Source: a virus. From it: a DNA stretch of 21,342 nucleotides. The stretch spans positions 1 to 21,342 of the IMG/VR virus record IMGVR_UViG_3300042945_002480; one strand, given 5' to 3'. The notes beneath the pieces are model-generated. The model was not told the DNA's origin. It saw nothing but the letters and a program-made list of their open reading frames with translations, and ran no database searches. Made by a program: the position numbers and the translations under genes. Positions 760 to 14,848 of this stretch are shown piece after piece; the first letter of the stretch is position 1; each line of letters opens with the position of its first letter.

Positions 760-1584
760 TCACGCTTTCTTCACATAGCGCTTCTTGCCTGACTTGGTGA
801 CGACGAAGGTGCCGCCCTTCGCGCCATGCTGAACAGCCTGGTGCATTGCCCGATCGTGCGGGGTGTGCGTCGTCGCAGTGCCGTGCTGAGTCTGAGAGAC
901 CGCCTTGGCTCTCGGCTGCTCGTGGTGGAGCCCGAGCGCAGCACGCGCCGCGTGGAGGGTGCCTTGCGTCTGGGCTGCGAGGTGCGCGCCTCGACGCTCG
1001 TGTCGATCGGCCTGAGCCAAGTGCGCATCGCGGAGCTCACCAGTAGCGCGAGCAGCGGCAGCGTGATGCGCCCTGGCGGCAGCAGCATGGGCAGACTCGT
1101 GATCACGCCCGGCAGCCTGTGCCGACGAAGCCATGGCGTGGGCAGTCTCGGGCGAAGATCCGCCAGCGGTCAGACGAGCGAAGGTGTCACGAGGTCGCTC
1201 GCCTCGCGGGTACGAAGTAGCCATCGTTCGATCCGCGTGAGCCGTCGCAGCGGCGGACTGTCGACTGGTCATGGGGCGTTCCTGCGGTGCTGGCGCAGCA
1301 ACCCTCTGCGGCGACGCAGCACGCGCCTCGGAAGAGGTCGCATGCTGGCGCAGAGTGGTTGCCTCTGCGGTCAGTCCAACGCGCTCGGCAGCACTGGCCC
1401 CCGTGCGCGCGTGGGCTGCCGCAGCCCGGTGATGCATCGCAGCGCTCTCGTGGTCGCCACGCTGCTCTGCGATCGTCGCAGCTCGCTGCGAGAGCTCTGC
1501 CTGTCGCGTTGCAGTCTCGATCGTCGGGCGAGCATACGCCTGCTCACGCGCACGCCGCTCACGCGGGTCAACCCGTAGTCCCAT
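760..1584 (-). CDS. Ala/His-rich helical protein with basic KGGTF...YVKK tail, 274 aa
   Basis: The family is not recognised. The protein is rich in Ala, His, Arg and Gln, and has two similar helical stretches (about residues 25-70 and 150-205) with AA..AH patterns and a shared GDHES/RDHES element, which suggests repeated helical hairpins. It ends in GAKGGTFVVTKSGKKRYVKK plus Ala, a glycine-led two-strand basic tail. The same tail ends the otherwise different 102-aa protein at 10906-11214. ATG 1584 is preceded by GAGGT at a spacing of 7, and that Shine-Dalgarno overlaps the stop of the upstream gene. The place among structural genes and the basic tail would fit a virion or DNA-binding protein, but that is inference. 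Long plus-strand frames here are mirror images of the alanine-rich codons. Confidence 0.75.
   Translation of the reverse strand: MGLRVDPRERRAREQAYARPTIETATRQAELSQRAATIAEQRGDHESAAMHHRAAAAHARTGASAAERVGLTAEATTLRQHATSSEARAASPQRVAAPAPQERPMTSRQSAAATAHADRTMATSYPRGERPRDTFARLTAGGSSPETAHAMASSAQAAGRDHESAHAAAARAHHAAAARATGELRDAHLAQADRHERRGAHLAAQTQGTLHAARAALGLHHEQPRAKAVSQTQHGTATTHTPHDRAMHQAVQHGAKGGTFVVTKSGKKRYVKKA
766..825 (-). repeat. Copy 1 of a duplicated C-terminal tag segment
   Basis: These 60 bases encode the tail GAKGGTFVVTKSGKKRYVKK. The stretch is similar at DNA level to 10912-10971, including an identical 15-base block (ggtgacgacgaaggt on the plus strand, 796-810 here and 10942-10956 there). That looks like a copied or recombined module rather than chance convergence. 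Confidence 0.75.
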
Positions 1585-9827: not shown

Positions 9828-10220
9828 TCAAGCCATCGAGAGCTTCATGCGATCCCGGTCGTTGGGATCGCTGCCTGAAAGAAGCGCATGTTCAGCAACA
9901 ACGAGTTCCATCAGCTCAATAGCTTGAAGCATCTTCTTCCGCGACCACCATGCTTTGCGCCGACGCCCGTGCGTTTGATGTGTTGCTAAACCGCGCCGCA
10001 GATCGGATAGAAGCCTCGCTGGCCGCGAGATGTGAATGCGCTTCGGTGGCCCAATAGGGAGCGCATCAAACGCGCTTCCAGGCATACCGATGAGCATCGC
10101 CAACTCGTAGACGTGCCCATCCCAGCCTTCAGATGAGCACGCGGCCTGGAGCACCGCGAACCGTTCCAACCGTGTGAGATTGGAGAGTTCTGCGTTGGTG
10201 CGTTGACCTGGTGGGTTCAC
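9828..10220 (-). CDS. Hypothetical protein, 130 aa
   Basis: Not recognised. The first half is helical (NLTRLERFAVLQAACSSEGWDGHVYELAMLIGMPGSAF), then comes a basic stretch ISRPARLLSDLRRGLATHQTHGRRRKAWWSRKK that could contact nucleic acid, then a helix LQAIELMELVVAEHALL and a polar tail. The start is the GTG at 10220, overlapping the QueE stop as GTGA; the Shine-Dalgarno is weak, so translation is probably coupled to QueE. The gene ends exactly where the repeat cluster of the next gene begins. Nothing links it firmly to base modification or packaging. Confidence 0.72.
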   Translation of the reverse strand: MNPPGQRTNAELSNLTRLERFAVLQAACSSEGWDGHVYELAMLIGMPGSAFDALPIGPPKRIHISRPARLLSDLRRGLATHQTHGRRRKAWWSRKKMLQAIELMELVVAEHALLSGSDPNDRDRMKLSMA

Positions 10221-10885
10221 GGCAAGCCCGCCACTTTGTGCGTTTGAATCGACAGGCGCCAGTGCGGGTTCTTCATCACATAGTCGGCCGCTTGGCGCAT
10301 GTTCTCTCGGTCGAGCAAGCTCTTACCAACCTCTGCTGGAACGCACGACGCGCGCGGCTGCACGAAGTGATGCGACGCCAGCACACCGGCGTCGATGTAG
10401 CTCTGGGGGTCGTAATCAGGGAACACGACCTTGATCTCATCGACGTTGCGAAGAGCAAGACGGTGGGGCGCCACCTTGGGTGACATCGTCAGCCAGAGTC
10501 TCGGTGCGAGATCGTGCGGAGCATCGAGCGTGCCGTTGGTCTCGACAGCGACTACACGAGACCCGCGCTCCAGCATCTCGACGAGAGGAGCATCGATCTG
10601 GAGCAGCGGCTCGCCACCAGTCAGCACGACCAGCGGGACGTTTGGCAGCGCCGCGATTCGCTTGTCAAGCTCGTCGAGCGAGAGCTTCTCGCGCATCGCG
10701 AAGTCGGTGTCACACCATCGCGGACACTGGGCCTCGTGGCGAGCGGCATCCCGCTCACGATCTTGCGGCTTGCCGCTCCAGAGGTTGCATGCCGCGAAAC
10801 GGACGAACACCGCGCATGTGCCTGCGTGATAGCCCTCGCCCTGAATGGTGTGGAAGATCTCGGTGACTGCGTACTTGTTTCCCAT
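10217..10885 (-). CDS. queE: 7-carboxy-7-deazaguanine synthase QueE, 222 aa
   Basis: Radical S-adenosylmethionine enzyme that contracts 6-carboxytetrahydropterin to 7-carboxy-7-deazaguanine, the third step towards preQ0. Recognised by EIFHTIQGEG at residues 9-18, FAACNLWSG (30-38), WCDTDF (57-62), LTGGEPLLQ (88-96) for SAM binding, VAVETNGT (112-119) and SPKVAPH. The cluster cysteines appear to be C33, C54 and C58, giving C-x20-C-x3-C instead of the C-x14-C-x2-C seen in several characterised QueE enzymes. ATG 10885 begins MGNKYAVTEIFHTIQGEG, a typical QueE start, but has no good Shine-Dalgarno. It is separated from queD and folE by the ParB-like and tagged genes yet belongs to the same run. 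Confidence 0.93.
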   Translation of the reverse strand: MGNKYAVTEIFHTIQGEGYHAGTCAVFVRFAACNLWSGKPQDRERDAARHEAQCPRWCDTDFAMREKLSLDELDKRIAALPNVPLVVLTGGEPLLQIDAPLVEMLERGSRVVAVETNGTLDAPHDLAPRLWLTMSPKVAPHRLALRNVDEIKVVFPDYDPQSYIDAGVLASHHFVQPRASCVPAEVGKSLLDRENMRQAADYVMKNPHWRLSIQTHKVAGLP

Positions 10886-10905
10886 GCAGGAAGTCTTGCA
10901 CGCCG

Positions 10906-11214
10906 CTACTTCTTTTTCACATACCTCTTCTTGCCGGAAGCGGTGACGACGAAGGTCCCGCCCTTGGCGCCACGCTGTGTCGAAGCAGCAGCTCTCTTCT
11001 GATCTGCTGCGTAGAGCTCGGGGTGCGCGGCAACCATGTGCTGATGTCGCGCATGATCGTGCTCGCGCCGCCTCTTCGGGTCGCGCACGGTCTGGAGAGC
11101 TTCGACGTGCGCAGCTGCCGCGCGCACGTGCGCCTCACGAGTCCGAAGGTGGTTGGCCTCCTGAGTCAGCCGATGCGCTCTCGCTGATGCCGTCTCGCTG
11201 CGTGCCGTTGCCAT
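10906..11214 (-). CDS. Small basic helical protein with KGGTF...YVKK tail, 102 aa
   Basis: Family not recognised. Residues 1-80 are Ala/His/Arg-rich helix (TQEANHLRTREAHVRAAAAH is representative), and the last 21 residues are GAKGGTFVVTASGKKRYVKK plus Lys, nearly identical to the end of the 274-aa protein at 760-1584. ATG 11214 has a perfect AAGGAGG six bases upstream, which fixes the start even though it lies 80 nt inside the ParB-like gene in another frame. The protein is strongly basic, suggesting nucleic-acid binding. It sits between the ParB-like gene and queE, inside the modification cassette, so it may be a cassette component or may simply share a virion-type tag. Confidence 0.85.
   Translation of the reverse strand: MATARSETASARAHRLTQEANHLRTREAHVRAAAAHVEALQTVRDPKRRREHDHARHQHMVAAHPELYAADQKRAAASTQRGAKGGTFVVTASGKKRYVKKK
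10912..10971 (-). repeat. Copy 2 of a duplicated C-terminal tag segment
   Basis: These bases encode GAKGGTFVVTASGKKRYVKK. They align with 766-825 at both DNA and protein level; within the tag only one residue differs (Ala for Lys after VVT). Confidence 0.75.
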
Positions 11215-11908
11215 CCTGTGCCTCCTTGCTCTTCCTGGCCTTGCGCTTGCCCAGAGGCGGTGTGGGGCCCTGGGCGGGGTGCTCCTCGGCGTAGACGGTG
11301 CACAGGTGTGCAAGGGCCACGGCGAGGTCATCGGTCGATGCGTGTTGCTGCGCAGCGACGATAGCACGGTCGAGCGCCGCCCTCTGGTCAGCTGTGAGCT
11401 TGACCTTGAAGGTCTCCGCAGCCTCGCTGCCAGTCACACCAGCAGCATTCGCGTCGTCCTGCACGATGATCGAGTTGAGGTCGAAGGAAGCGATGTCGAG
11501 CATCCGCTGGATGTCTTCGGAGGTGTAGGGCAGCGCGGCCATGCCGACATCGCCGAGCTCCATGTGCAGGCCCGCGATCAACTCTGCGAGCTTGTTCGTG
11601 TCAGGCTCGCCACTGATCTCGTTCAGCGCAATGGTCAATCGCTTGGCCACGTGATCGGGAATCTCGCCCAGGTCGACCACTGCGATGTCGGCAACCCCTT
11701 CGAGCTTGGCCGCGCGCCAACGGTGCTCGCCGTCCACGACCTCGAAGCCGTCGATGCCCGGCACGCGCCGGACCGTGACGGGATCTACGAACCCGAACTC
11801 GCGGATGCTCCGGCGAGCCCGCTCGAACATGAACTCGCTCTGCTGATTCGGATTCCAGGGATTCGGCCGCAGGGACGCCGCGGGCACCACACGCACTTCG
11901 TTGATCAT
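11135..11908 (-). CDS. ParB/Srx-domain protein, 257 aa
   Basis: The N-terminal domain (about residues 3-90) has the ParB/sulfiredoxin-like fold signature: RPNPWNPN, then RRSIREFGFVDPVTVRR, then VVDGEHRWRAAKLEG with the GEHR motif at 60-63. This fold binds nucleotides and in several families cleaves CTP or ATP or nicks DNA. The middle is helical and the last 40 residues are basic then Ser/Gly-rich and look disordered. ATG 11908 is preferred to the GTG at 11920 because GGAG lies six bases before it. The gene follows dpdA by 12 nt. In bacterial dpd islands the transglycosylase DpdA works with DpdB, which I recall as DndB/ParB-related; a similar partner role here is inference. Confidence 0.88.
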   Translation of the reverse strand: MINEVRVVPAASLRPNPWNPNQQSEFMFERARRSIREFGFVDPVTVRRVPGIDGFEVVDGEHRWRAAKLEGVADIAVVDLGEIPDHVAKRLTIALNEISGEPDTNKLAELIAGLHMELGDVGMAALPYTSEDIQRMLDIASFDLNSIIVQDDANAAGVTGSEAAETFKVKLTADQRAALDRAIVAAQQHASTDDLAVALAHLCTVYAEEHPAQGPTPPLGKRKARKSKEAQDGNGTQRDGISESASADSGGQPPSDS

Positions 11909-11920
11909 TTCTCTCTCCAC

Positions 11921-12862
11921 CTATCGAATGCCGGGGATCGGTCGTGTCGGCGCTACGGTCACGCGCGAGTCGAGCCACTGCTGGAAGTCCGCATACGACT
12001 CCATGGATGCGAAGGCATGCCGATAGTACACGGTACGCTTCTTGAGCGCTTCGATCTCTTCGGGGAACCTCTTGGCCACGAGAGCAAGCCATCGCTGCCA
12101 CTCGGGTGAGTCCAACTCGAATGTCAGGATCTTGCCGTTACCCGTGTGCAAGCTTGACTGGTTGTACCGCACGCCAGAGATCCACGATGTCGAGTCGCAT
12201 GTGTATGCTAGCGGCGTCATCATCAACTCCGGCACCGTGCAGCCGAGCAAGTGGATCCTCGGCGGCAGCTTGCCTGCGTCCGCGCATGTCTTGTGGATCC
12301 GCTTAAGTAATGCGAACACCGCCTGCTTGTAGCGATCGCTACCCATCGAGTGCGTTCCACCGCCTACGGTCACCCGGAGCTCAGGGACAGAGAGCGCGAT
12401 GTAGTCCTGTTCGAGCGCGAGCTTGTCGAGGCCGTCGAGTCCCTCGGGCGCGTGCCAGACGTAGATCACTCGCCCGCCGAACGGCTTGAACTCCTCCCGC
12501 AATCGATGCGTCGCATCCATGCCGAGCAGCTTCTGCGTGTCGCTCTCGACGAACAGACCGCGGTAGCCAGCCTGATCGAGAGCCTCGATGTACCGTAGCG
12601 TGTAATCGCGGTACGCATCGAACGTGCGCGGCAGCATCCCTTTCTTCGTTCCGAACATCAGGGAGAAGAGGCCGCTGTCCACGATCAGCGAACCGGGCAC
12701 CGTGTCCTTGAGCGCGTCGTAGGTGCGGTTGCGGCGGCCAGGCCCGCCGAGCTCCAGGTAGGAGACCAGGACCCACAGGCCGCTCTCGCCGTTGCGCCAG
12801 CGCCGCTCGACCCAGAAGGCGCCAGGACCCTCCAGAGTCGCTGCGGCTAGATGGACCCTCAC
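11921..12862 (-). CDS. dpdA: DpdA-type DNA-guanine transglycosylase, 313 aa
   Basis: A member of the tRNA-guanine transglycosylase superfamily in its DNA-acting DpdA form, which exchanges guanine in DNA for a 7-deazaguanine base. VDSGLFS (61-67) corresponds to the DSGGFQ motif of TGT with its active-site Asp 62; HLLGCTVPE (204-212) matches the LLG substrate-binding segment; and CDSTSW (222-227) supplies the second, nucleophile-like Asp 223. The CxCxxC zinc site of tRNA-acting TGT is absent, and the protein is shorter than typical TGT (about 375 aa), as expected for phage DpdA. The start is a GTG at 12862, overlapping the transporter stop as GTGA with GGAGG just upstream; the frame stays open far upstream but that part lies under the transporter gene. 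Confidence 0.9.
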   Translation of the reverse strand: MRVHLAAATLEGPGAFWVERRWRNGESGLWVLVSYLELGGPGRRNRTYDALKDTVPGSLIVDSGLFSLMFGTKKGMLPRTFDAYRDYTLRYIEALDQAGYRGLFVESDTQKLLGMDATHRLREEFKPFGGRVIYVWHAPEGLDGLDKLALEQDYIALSVPELRVTVGGGTHSMGSDRYKQAVFALLKRIHKTCADAGKLPPRIHLLGCTVPELMMTPLAYTCDSTSWISGVRYNQSSLHTGNGKILTFELDSPEWQRWLALVAKRFPEEIEALKKRTVYYRHAFASMESYADFQQWLDSRVTVAPTRPIPGIR

Positions 12863-13476
12863 GACAGCCTCCGAACGCCTGCAATCGCCCCGTAGGAAGC
12901 GGGCAGGCCGCCGATGGCGCACACCAGCTTGAGCGCGTACTGCGCGCCGATCATCACAGCCAGTATGCCCCACGGCAGCACGAAGGCGAACGCCACCAGA
13001 ACGAACACGGTGGAGTCGACGGCCTGTCCGACCACCGTCGACCCGAGCTTGCGCAGCCAGAGCTTCTTGGGCCCGGTCCAACTCCGGATCAGGAAAAACA
13101 TCCGCACATCGACCAGGCCGCCGAGCAGGAAGGCCGCGAGTGAAGCGCCAACGATCCTCGGAGTCGTCGCGAACACCGAGGCGAAACACACGCCAGTGGC
13201 GTCTGCGCCGGCCGGTGGGATCGCGAGGGCAAGCGTCGAGAACGCAACCAACACCAGACATCCGACGAAGGAAGCCAGCACGACGTGCCGTGCGCGCTCT
13301 TCTCCGTAGAGCTCGGAGATCACATCCTGGAGCACGTAGGTCAACGGGTAGGCCAAGGCACCCACGGTGAACGGCCCGAGCCCGAAGTCGATCAGCTTGG
13401 CCGCGACGGCATTGGCCGTCACATGCCCGCCTACGTAGATCGCCAGCAGGAACGCAAACGCCTTCTCGCGCCGCAT
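12859..13476 (-). CDS. yhhQ: YhhQ-type queuosine-precursor transporter, 205 aa
   Basis: Integral inner-membrane protein of the vitamin uptake transporter (VUT, YhhQ) family, which imports preQ0 or preQ1. Hallmarks are TANAVAAKLIDFG (20-32), LAYPLTYVLQDVISELYG (41-58) with the conserved Asp and Glu, RMFFLIRSWTG (115-125), KLGSTVVGQAVDSTVF (133-148) and a hydrophobic C-terminal part with ALKLVC. About six membrane segments fit within the 205 residues; E. coli YhhQ is 221. ATG 13476 begins one base after the previous stop. It sits between the QueD-like gene and dpdA, so it most likely feeds the transglycosylase by scavenging a ready-made base or preserving supply when host synthesis is weak. Confidence 0.93.
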   Translation of the reverse strand: MRREKAFAFLLAIYVGGHVTANAVAAKLIDFGLGPFTVGALAYPLTYVLQDVISELYGEERARHVVLASFVGCLVLVAFSTLALAIPPAGADATGVCFASVFATTPRIVGASLAAFLLGGLVDVRMFFLIRSWTGPKKLWLRKLGSTVVGQAVDSTVFVLVAFAFVLPWGILAVMIGAQYALKLVCAIGGLPASYGAIAGVRRLS

Positions 13477-13477
13477 G

Positions 13478-13816
13478 TCACCACTCCACGCGCGCGCCGC
13501 ACTCGTCGTCTTCCCAGACCTCGATCGCAAGAACCGGAAACTGCGAGAGCAATGTTCGAAGAACGATCGCGATGTGCTCACAAGACCTAGCACCCCACTG
13601 GTACTCACCGTCACCGAGAGCGAGACGAACAGCGCGCTGAAGTGTGTGAAACTCAATCTCTCGATCGCCGTCTACGACTGCGCACTCGACCCTGAAGGTG
13701 AACAGATGCCGGTGCTGCTGAGAGAGATATGCGACATCTGCTGGCGCGTTGGGCCAGGCGTGGAATCCGACCTGCCTGTGCGTCACGATGACGCGCGTTC
13801 TGGGAAGTACGGGCAT
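13478..13816 (-). CDS. Divergent QueD-like T-fold protein, 112 aa
   Basis: It resembles the 6-pyruvoyl-tetrahydropterin synthase/QueD fold. GFHAWPNAP gives His19, and QQHRHLFTFRVE gives His35 and His37; these are equivalent to the three zinc-binding histidines of QueD (H14, H27, H29 in the neighbour). SCEHIA (78-83) matches QueD TAENIA, and EVWEDDECGARVE matches the IYETPTSCADY strand with the substrate-binding Glu. The catalytic Cys that precedes HGH in QueD is missing; the only nearby acidic element is D27. From memory, similar FHxWPxAP...HRHxF proteins accompany preQ0 genes in other phages and actinobacteria. ATG 13816 overlaps the folE stop as TGATG with GGAGGT five bases upstream. A role in the deazaguanine pathway is inferred; the reaction is unknown. 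Confidence 0.75.
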   Translation of the reverse strand: MPVLPRTRVIVTHRQVGFHAWPNAPADVAYLSQQHRHLFTFRVECAVVDGDREIEFHTLQRAVRLALGDGEYQWGARSCEHIAIVLRTLLSQFPVLAIEVWEDDECGARVEW

Positions 13817-14412
13817 CACTCACCTCCTGCCAAAAGACGCAGCACTTCCGCGCGCGCTGCGGGATCATCGCGGAATAGGCCGCGAAGCACAGATGTCGCC
13901 ATGTCCATACCGCTCTTGCGCACGCCACGGCAGGAGGCGCAGGAGTGCTCCGCTGTTACGAATACCGCCACAGCTCGCGGCTTTAGGTACTTCTCCAGAG
14001 CATCGGCTATCTGCGAAGTCATCTGCTCCTGTAGCTGCGGGCGCCGTGCATACACATCAACGAGTCGTGGGATCTTGGACAATCCTACGACACGGAGCTT
14101 ACCCGGTGCGCCTGCGGGGATGTACGCAACCGATGCTCTCCCGGTGAATGGCAACAAGTGGTGCTCGCACAAGGAACTGAACGCGATTCGACGTACCGCG
14201 ACGATCTCGTCGTAGTTCCCAGAATCAAACGTCACGCTCAGAAGCTTGTCGACGTTGACCTCCGCGCCCTGCGTCATCTCCAGCATCGCGTCAACGACGC
14301 GGCGAGGGGTGTCGCGGATACCTTCACGGTCCGGGTCTTCGCCGACGTACTCGAGCAACGCGCGAACACCCATCAAGGCAGCCTGCCGCAGCCCAGGATC
14401 ACGCCGAGGCAC
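13816..14412 (-). CDS. folE: GTP cyclohydrolase I FolE, 198 aa
   Basis: It converts GTP to 7,8-dihydroneopterin triphosphate, the first step shared by folate and 7-deazaguanine synthesis. Clear family motifs are GEDPDREGIRDTPRRV near the N-terminus, SLCEHHLLPF carrying the zinc Cys and catalytic His, GLSKIPRLVDVYARRPQLQE, and AEHSCASCRGVRKSG with the second zinc Cys. The canonical C...HH...HxC ligand set is complete, so it should be active as a decamer. The start is set at GTG 14412 because AGAGG lies five bases before it; GTG 14418 and ATG 14373 are alternatives. It overlaps queD by 14 nt and the QueD-like gene by 1 nt, marking one translation unit. A phage copy increases flux to the DNA base. 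Confidence 0.95.
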   Translation of the reverse strand: MPRRDPGLRQAALMGVRALLEYVGEDPDREGIRDTPRRVVDAMLEMTQGAEVNVDKLLSVTFDSGNYDEIVAVRRIAFSSLCEHHLLPFTGRASVAYIPAGAPGKLRVVGLSKIPRLVDVYARRPQLQEQMTSQIADALEKYLKPRAVAVFVTAEHSCASCRGVRKSGMDMATSVLRGLFRDDPAARAEVLRLLAGGE

Positions 14413-14848
14413 GATCACCTCTACAGTAGTCAGCGCAGGAGGTTGGAGTCTCGTAGATCTTGATGTTGGTCACTGAGACACCAGTACCAGCAAGCAGCTC
14501 GCCAGCCCGGTGATGCAGCTCGATGGCGATGTTCTCAGCAGTCGGCTCACCATTGAAGACGTAGGGAGGTCGCTTGCCTAGAGCGACATGCTCGTGCTCA
14601 CAAAACGCCATCAATGCCGCGTCTGCGCGGTTGACCAGCGTGGTGTGATCCCAAGTGTCGTCAATCCACTTGCCTACGCGCTCTTTGATCACGCTGAAGT
14701 CAACAACGCGCCCAACGCTATCAAGTGCTGGCGCGGTGACTGTGATCTCAGCGGCGTACCTGTGCCCATGCAGAGACCCACACTTTGACTCGTGCCGAAG
14801 GACACGGTGCGCGGAGTCCCACTCCAATCGCTTCGTTACAGTGATCAT
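14399..14848 (-). CDS. queD: 6-carboxytetrahydropterin synthase QueD, 149 aa
   Basis: It turns dihydroneopterin triphosphate into 6-carboxy-5,6,7,8-tetrahydropterin, the second step of preQ0 synthesis. All expected residues are visible: zinc ligands H14 (DSAHRV), H27 and H29 (SLHGHRY), catalytic C23 in KCGSLHGH, the DFSVIK strand, the WDHTTL Asp-His pair (67-68), PTAENIA and the substrate-anchoring E133 in YETPTS. Length is within the usual range (about 120-150). ATG 14848 has GGAGG five bases upstream. It begins the modification cassette 70 bases after the SbcC-like gene; that gap has no recognisable terminator, so read-through from the recombination block is possible. Confidence 0.95.
   Translation of the reverse strand: MITVTKRLEWDSAHRVLRHESKCGSLHGHRYAAEITVTAPALDSVGRVVDFSVIKERVGKWIDDTWDHTTLVNRADAALMAFCEHEHVALGKRPPYVFNGEPTAENIAIELHHRAGELLAGTGVSVTNIKIYETPTSCADYCRGDRASA

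What the first reader, a model, noticed from the sequence alone, without database searches (positions are those of the whole stretch)
10217..14848. Phage 7-deazaguanine DNA-modification cassette with both synthesis and import genes but no QueC in view
queD, folE, a QueD-like gene, yhhQ, dpdA, a parB-like gene and queE run in one direction with near-continuous overlaps. FolE-QueD-QueE make 7-carboxy-7-deazaguanine, YhhQ imports preQ0/preQ1, and DpdA inserts a deazaguanine into DNA. Phage cassettes of this kind are known to protect DNA against host restriction. QueC (CDG to preQ0), QueF and Gat-QueC are absent here, so the inserted base is undetermined: CDG itself, host-made preQ0, or a product of genes outside the window. 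Carrying both a de novo arm and a transporter is redundant and hints at two supply routes.
Basis: partly seen in the sequence, partly recalled or inferred. Interest (0 to 1): 0.85.

Follow-up and report, generated by a model that had tools for sequence, protein, structure and literature searches.

The report
Phage deazaguanine cassette, QueC replaced
A virus fragment carries a gene set for swapping guanine in its DNA for a modified guanine, and comparison with about 170 related loci indicates that its small unnamed QueD-like gene stands in for the missing QueC, so the inserted base is most likely plain 7-deazaguanine rather than the usual cyano form.

Summary
The cassette is real: on the minus strand QueD, FolE, a 112-aa QueD-like protein, YhhQ, DpdA, ParB and QueE, with coupled or abutting ORFs up to ParB. 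The record is only a 21.3-kb fragment, so 'no QueC' cannot be read from it alone. Comparative data fill the gap. The small QueD-like gene ('QueDL') has a predicted QueD/PTPS fold, keeps the three presumed zinc histidines and the substrate-binding glutamates, but lacks QueD's catalytic cysteine and Asp-His pair. In 72 virus loci sampled by FolE (not by QueDL), 44 had QueC, 17 had QueDL, none had both; 94 loci sampled by QueDL had no QueC. QueDL occupies QueC's slot in otherwise identical gene orders, and the two were exchanged repeatedly (at least 7 well-supported switches on a FolE tree). QueDL therefore most likely consumes the QueE product CDG. The best fit is CDG decarboxylation to 7-deazaguanine, inserted by DpdA as dDG (the role I recall predicted for 'DpdL'; that paper was not readable here). 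Synthesis genes plus a YhhQ transporter is not unique: phage CAjan and two metagenomic loci share it. Side finding: QueDL cassettes often carry a GT-B glycosyltransferase (12/17, against 2/44 with QueC); none is visible here.

The parts
14399..14848 (-). QueD, 6-carboxytetrahydropterin synthase (149 aa)
   Evidence: Pfam PTPS E=3e-28; phrog_2389 QueD-like E=6e-35; retains C23, H27, the HGH motif, D67-H68 and E133, columns conserved among phage QueDs; below the TIGR03367 cut-off (75 against 89 bits)
13816..14418 (-). FolE, GTP cyclohydrolase I (200 aa)
   Evidence: Pfam E=1.4e-65; TIGR00063 folE above cut-off
13478..13816 (-). QueDL: short T-fold QueD paralogue (112 aa, ATG start), proposed CDG-processing enzyme in QueC's place (candidate DpdL, CDG decarboxylase)
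   Evidence: Family alignments with invariant H19, H35, H37, R52, E55, S78, E80, E102; hhalign to phage QueD 95%, E=3.8e-8, no match to FolE; AF2 pLDDT 94, best PDB match E. coli QueD, TM 0.75-0.80; mutually exclusive with QueC
12859..13476 (-). YhhQ/QPTR-family queuosine-precursor transporter (205 aa)
   Evidence: Pfam Vut_1 E=9e-42; TIGR00697 above cut-off
11921..12862 (-). DpdA, DNA guanine transglycosylase (313 aa, GTG start)
   Evidence: phrog_887 E=5e-19; D62, H204 and D223 invariant in its group; hhalign 100%, E=1e-61 to the CAjan/Bipper-type DpdA group, about 93% to the two other DpdA groups
11135..11920 (-). ParB-like protein (ParB_N domain), recurrent partner of DpdA
   Evidence: Pfam ParB_N E=3e-11; next to DpdA in many cassettes
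10906..11214 (-). small ORF between ParB and QueE with basic tail GGTFVVTASGKKRYVKKK; role unknown, not clearly part of the pathway
   Evidence: Pfam PBCV_basic_adap E=0.0017, below cut-off
10217..10885 (-). QueE, 7-carboxy-7-deazaguanine synthase (222 aa), three cluster cysteines C33, C54, C58
   Evidence: TIGR04508 E=4e-49 but below its cut-off; phrog_2076 E=2e-29; cysteines invariant in alignment

Best explanation
This is a phage 7-deazaguanine DNA-modification cassette of a QueC-free type. FolE, QueD and QueE make 7-carboxy-7-deazaguanine (CDG) from GTP (inferred from family membership). The small T-fold protein QueDL, which takes the place of QueC, consumes CDG; the most likely reaction is zinc-dependent decarboxylation to 7-deazaguanine (inferred). 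DpdA then exchanges guanine in phage DNA for this base, giving 2'-deoxy-7-deazaguanosine (dDG) and resistance to host restriction enzymes (inferred from the DpdA family). YhhQ is an accessory importer of queuosine precursors, scattered over cassettes of both types; ParB is a recurrent DpdA neighbour whose role is unknown. Shown here: gene content, coupling, predicted fold, loss of QueD's catalytic residues, exclusion of QueC and use of its slot. Inferred: the reaction, the base and the protective effect.
For: Gene identities and translational coupling. QueDL: QueD/PTPS fold; three His and the Glu/SCE residues kept while QueD's Cys and Asp-His region is gone. Exclusion of QueC: FolE-sampled loci with FolE+QueE gave 44 QueC only, 17 QueDL only, 0 both, 11 neither; QueDL-sampled loci gave 0 of 94 with QueC. 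Of 12 phage genomes with QueDL (whole records searched), 11 have FolE and QueE, 11 have a PTPS-family match (one of them sub-threshold), and none has a convincing QueC (one partial 33-bit match); of 48 IMG/VR contigs only weak partial matches, while the CAjan control scores 251 bits. Same slot: ParB-DpdA-X-QueD-QueE-FolE with X=QueC in nine loci and X=QueDL in two; five further shared orders. Repeated exchange: 16 changes on a FolE tree, at least 7 forced by well-supported branches; 7 of 7 independent pairs swap. Phage phiST has QueDL with FolE/QueD/QueE and no QueC, whereas phiSM has QueC and an annotated 7-cyano-7-deazaguanine reductase.
Against: No experiment shows what QueDL does; decarboxylation rests on pathway position, fold and a recollected published prediction (DpdL) that I could not read. 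Faecalibacterium phage Roos has QueDL, DpdA, ParB and a transporter but no FolE, QueD or QueE anywhere in its record, so there the substrate must come from elsewhere. The frequent glycosyltransferase beside QueDL is hard to explain if the product is a base with a bare C7. The window is a fragment, so later-acting genes may be missing.
Confidence: 0.6

Rival explanations
1. QueDL acts on CDG or on DNA-borne CDG but is not a simple decarboxylase: the final base is dCDG itself or another CDG derivative, possibly glycosylated in relatives.
For: QueDL replaces QueC, so CDG is the branch point. A GT-B protein neighbours QueDL in 12 of 17 QueDL cassettes against 2 of 44 QueC cassettes, and a nucleotide-sugar epimerase occurs in 23 of 107 QueDL loci. 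Phage Bipper shows that a cassette can lack QueC without QueDL, which Hutinet et al. read as possible CDG.
Against: If CDG itself were inserted, no extra enzyme would be needed and QueDL would have no role. The glycosyltransferase link is not significant after tree correction (median p 0.125), and no glycosyltransferase is in the window.
Confidence: 0.17
2. The inserted base is preQ0 or preQ1 from the host or imported through YhhQ; the phage FolE/QueD/QueE only raise flux, with host QueC finishing the job.
For: YhhQ-family proteins import preQ0/preQ1 in E. coli (PMC6884629; PMC11130926); YhhQ is coupled to dpdA by a 4-bp overlap; Roos and phiFN37 have DpdA with a transporter and no complete synthesis set.
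Against: It leaves QueDL, and its strict exclusion of QueC, unexplained. YhhQ is absent from most QueDL cassettes (74 of 78).
Confidence: 0.13
3. QueC or an amidotransferase-QueC lies outside the 21-kb fragment, and the cassette makes dPreQ0 or dG+.
For: The record is a linear fragment.
Against: 0 of 94 QueDL-sampled loci and none of the whole-record searches of 12 phage genomes and 48 contigs give a convincing QueC beside QueDL.
Confidence: 0.06
4. DpdA here acts on tRNA and the cassette supports queuosine synthesis.
For: DpdA is a TGT homologue annotated as 'queuine tRNA-ribosyltransferase'.
Against: It groups with the CAjan/Bipper phage DpdA set, its neighbour is ParB as in other phage DpdA cassettes, and without QueC/QueF the genes in view cannot make preQ1.
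Confidence: 0.04

Closest known systems
E. coli phage CAjan cassette (dPreQ0 group of Hutinet et al. 2019)
   Same: FolE, QueD, QueE, DpdA and a putative preQ0 transporter in one cluster; the two DpdA groups match over 244 columns
   Different: CAjan has QueC and no QueDL; the window has QueDL and no QueC
Cellulophaga phage phiST and Acidovorax phage ACP17 cassettes
   Same: FolE, QueD, QueE and QueDL without QueC
   Different: Their DpdA groups differ from the window's; no YhhQ beside them; ACP17 has a glycosyltransferase between DpdA and QueDL
DpdL, the predicted CDG decarboxylase of dDG phages (Cui et al., NAR 2023; recalled, not readable here)
   Same: Expected pathway position (replaces QueC after CDG), and a phage setting without QueC
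   Different: Identity of QueDL with the published DpdL sequence could not be tested
Mycobacterium phage Bipper cassette
   Same: DpdA, QueD, QueE and FolE without QueC
   Different: No QueDL detected (best, unrelated match 11 bits) and no YhhQ in the cassette; predicted possible CDG insertion (PMC6884629)
IMG/VR loci L064 and L131
   Same: All seven genes of the window: QueDL, DpdA, ParB, YhhQ, QueD, QueE, FolE
   Different: Gene order differs; L131 has two ParB matches

Membership tests
Phage 7-deazaguanine DNA-modification cassette | DpdA homologue with the two catalytic Asp positions | tested here: met
   phrog_887 E=5e-19; D62 and D223 invariant
Phage 7-deazaguanine DNA-modification cassette | FolE, QueD and QueE beside dpdA | tested here: met
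Phage 7-deazaguanine DNA-modification cassette | modified guanine in virion DNA | not testable with these tools
   needs LC-MS
preQ0 / archaeosine subtype (CAjan, 9g) | QueC or Gat-QueC | tested here: not met
   PF06508 no match; no SGGxDS motif, no QueC HMM match in six frames; fragment only
QueD (TIGR03367) | catalytic Cys and Asp-His pair, for the 112-aa QueDL | tested here: not met
   absent in alignments with QueD; no Pfam PTPS hit
QueD/PTPS T-fold superfamily (for QueDL) | fold and three histidines of the presumed Zn site | tested here: met
   hhalign 95%; TM 0.75-0.80 to E. coli QueD; H19, H35, H37 invariant
DpdL (CDG decarboxylase) | sequence identity with the published DpdL | not tested
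   paper not held in the library; recalled only
DpdL (CDG decarboxylase) | occurs in cassettes that make CDG but lack QueC | tested here: met
   0 of 94 and 0 of 17 QueDL loci with QueC
DpdL (CDG decarboxylase) | decarboxylates CDG | not testable with these tools
   needs enzyme assay
YhhQ/QPTR transporter (TIGR00697) | score above curated cut-off | tested here: met
   127 against 51 bits
YhhQ/QPTR transporter (TIGR00697) | preQ0/preQ1 as substrate | not testable with these tools
   specificities differ within the family (PMC11130926)

The most novel reading that the evidence does not exclude
QueDL defines a second, QueC-free branch of phage deazaguanine chemistry that has displaced QueC many times, and in a large share of phages its product is glycosylated by a linked GT-B enzyme, perhaps at the exposed C7 carbon of 7-deazaguanine, giving a kind of DNA base not described so far as I know. 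The window would carry the unglycosylated or only partly visible form of this branch.
Probability: 0.12. Interest if true: 0.8.

Novelty: new member of a known kind. Interest (0 to 1): 0.5.

Why it matters
7-deazaguanine removes N7, a major-groove contact used by many restriction enzymes, so such DNA would be a compact way to escape restriction. The link between QueDL and glycosyltransferases points to possible further base chemistry.

Tried and rejected
A spare-QueD reading of the 112-aa gene: rejected, since catalytic residues are missing and a full QueD is present. DpdA related-loci scan with the single window protein: no relatives. QueE profile scan: not conserved enough, so FolE was used as the neutral probe. 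First YhhQ tblastn used a wrong frame and was repeated. The NAR 2023 paper on dDG/DpdL and the 2024 review were not held; paper searches for DpdL, DpdA3 and dCDG gave nothing useful. QueDL in phiFN37 and Bipper: not found. PDB sequence searches with DpdA: no meaningful hit. The glycosyltransferase link was tested on the FolE tree: same direction in about 4 of 7 independent pairs and opposite in 0.3, median p 0.125, so it stays suggestive. The first interval for DpdA (start about 12775) was wrong; the GTG at 12862 is used. Of the 11 'neither' cassettes, most begin within about 500 bases of a contig end, but a few (such as L124, L154) do not and may be a third, Bipper-like kind.
Full report
Observation. 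The window is a whole IMG/VR virus record of 21342 bases, linear and probably a fragment. On the minus strand, 14848 to 10217, it encodes QueD, FolE, a short QueD-like protein, YhhQ, DpdA, a ParB-like protein and QueE. Junctions are tight: QueD/FolE overlap by 20 bp, the FolE stop overlaps the QueDL ATG, YhhQ starts 1 bp after QueDL, DpdA starts at a GTG at 12862 that overlaps the YhhQ stop by 4 bp, and ParB abuts DpdA. A small basic-tailed ORF sits between ParB and QueE. Flanking genes are ordinary phage genes: SSB, UvsX/RecA, exonuclease and SbcC upstream, large terminase and portal downstream. No QueC is in the record.

The short QueD-like gene. It has no Pfam or NCBIfam match, only a PHROG of unknown function. 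Homologues in sequenced phages lie mostly beside FolE, QueD or QueE. The family has invariant H19, H35, H37, R52, E55, S78, E80 and E102. Profile comparison with phage QueDs gives 95% over the full length, and none with FolE. AlphaFold2 gives a confident model (pLDDT 94) whose best solved matches are E. coli QueD structures (TM 0.75-0.80). The residues QueD uses for catalysis (the Cys before the HGH motif and the Asp-His pair) are missing, while the three histidines, the final Glu and the SCE motif (QueD's T-x-E) remain. That the histidines bind zinc is by analogy with QueD. So it looks like a pterin- or deazapurine-binding, zinc-dependent enzyme with another reaction. I call it QueDL.

QueDL replaces QueC. 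To avoid sampling by QueDL, FolE was used as probe: 80 IMG/VR loci, 72 with FolE and QueE, of which 44 have QueC, 17 have QueDL, none both and 11 neither (Fisher 1.6e-9, not corrected for kinship). In 94 loci sampled by QueDL, none has QueC. Whole-record searches agree: of 12 sequenced phages with QueDL one has a partial 33-bit QueC match and no other exceeds the cut-off, and of 48 contigs only weak partial matches appear, while the CAjan control scores 251 bits. Six gene orders exist in both versions, for example ParB-DpdA-X-QueD-QueE-FolE with QueC (nine loci) or QueDL (two) as X. On a FolE tree of 120 cassettes, QueC and QueDL change places at least 16 times, 7 of them forced by well-supported branches, and all 7 independent pairs swap. 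The window's nearest FolE relatives include both kinds. QueC's substrate is CDG, so an enzyme that takes its place in cassettes that make CDG most likely uses CDG.

Mechanism. FolE, QueD and QueE make CDG; QueDL most likely removes the carboxyl group to give 7-deazaguanine; DpdA inserts it into DNA as dDG. DpdA is of the CAjan/Bipper group (hhalign E=1e-61 against about 1e-7 for two other DpdA groups) and keeps the catalytic Asp positions D62 and D223. From memory, Cui et al. 2023 (NAR, gkad657) reported dDG in phage DNA and predicted a CDG decarboxylase named DpdL; I could not read that paper, so identity of QueDL and DpdL is a lead, not a test. It fits that phiST carries QueDL without QueC while phiSM carries QueC and an annotated 7-cyano-7-deazaguanine reductase.

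YhhQ. Synthesis plus transporter is precedented: CAjan has a putative preQ0 transporter inside its cassette, L064 and L131 share the window's full gene set, and L162 and L186 pair YhhQ with QueC. YhhQ appears in 7 of 120 cassettes by 7 changes, in both types. It is best seen as an accessory gene; its substrate is open because QPTR proteins differ in specificity.

Weak points. Phage Roos has QueDL, DpdA, ParB and YhhQ but no FolE, QueD or QueE, so its QueDL must use a host or imported substrate. QueDL is also linked to a GT-B protein (AF2 pLDDT 90; PDB matches are GT4-type enzymes), present in 12 of 17 QueDL against 2 of 44 QueC cassettes. This is suggestive but not significant after tree correction. 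If real, some QueDL phages may carry a glycosylated base, which a plain decarboxylase does not explain easily.

Verdict. The cassette is a new member of a known kind, and the added value is the evidence that its third gene is a QueC replacement, which makes the base predictable and testable.

Noticed in passing
L017:7448-8557, L035:11321-12379, L003:4966-5994 and about 60 other loci: A GT-B glycosyltransferase family sits beside QueDL (57 of 107 loci within 2 kb; 12 of 17 QueDL against 2 of 44 QueC cassettes), with nucleotide-sugar epimerases in 23 loci; it hints at glycosylated deazaguanine DNA.
   Followed up: partly
L002 (Faecalibacterium phage Roos) 6291-8887: ParB-QueDL-DpdA-YhhQ module with no FolE, QueD or QueE anywhere in the 54-kb record: a salvage-only version of the cassette.
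   Followed up: partly
window 10217-10885: QueE has an unusual cysteine spacing (C33-x20-C54-x3-C58) compared with CX14CX2C in L064; relative L016 shows an intermediate spacing.
   Followed up: no
window 760-1584 and 10906-11367, minus strand: Two ORFs share the basic C-terminal tail GGTFVVTxSGKKRYVKKx, weakly like the PBCV-specific basic adaptor domain.
   Followed up: no
L005:5464-6345, L007:5221-6372, L023:~9.3-10.4 kb: QueDL occurs as the C-terminal part of longer proteins; in phage MA9V-3 the N-terminal part looks like an HNH endonuclease by eye.
   Followed up: no
L154 and Bipper (L110:977-4320): Cassettes with DpdA, QueD, QueE and FolE but neither QueC nor QueDL away from contig ends: possible direct CDG insertion.
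   Followed up: no
QueDL loci, clusters 7 and 11: A phosphoribosyltransferase (34 of 107 loci) and a dCTP-deaminase-like protein (27 of 107 loci, alongside phiST-type DpdA) recur near QueDL.
   Followed up: no
L013 (Fusobacterium phage phiFN37) 5426-7735: ParB-DpdA-unknown 145-aa protein-transporter block similar to the window's order but without QueDL.
   Followed up: partly
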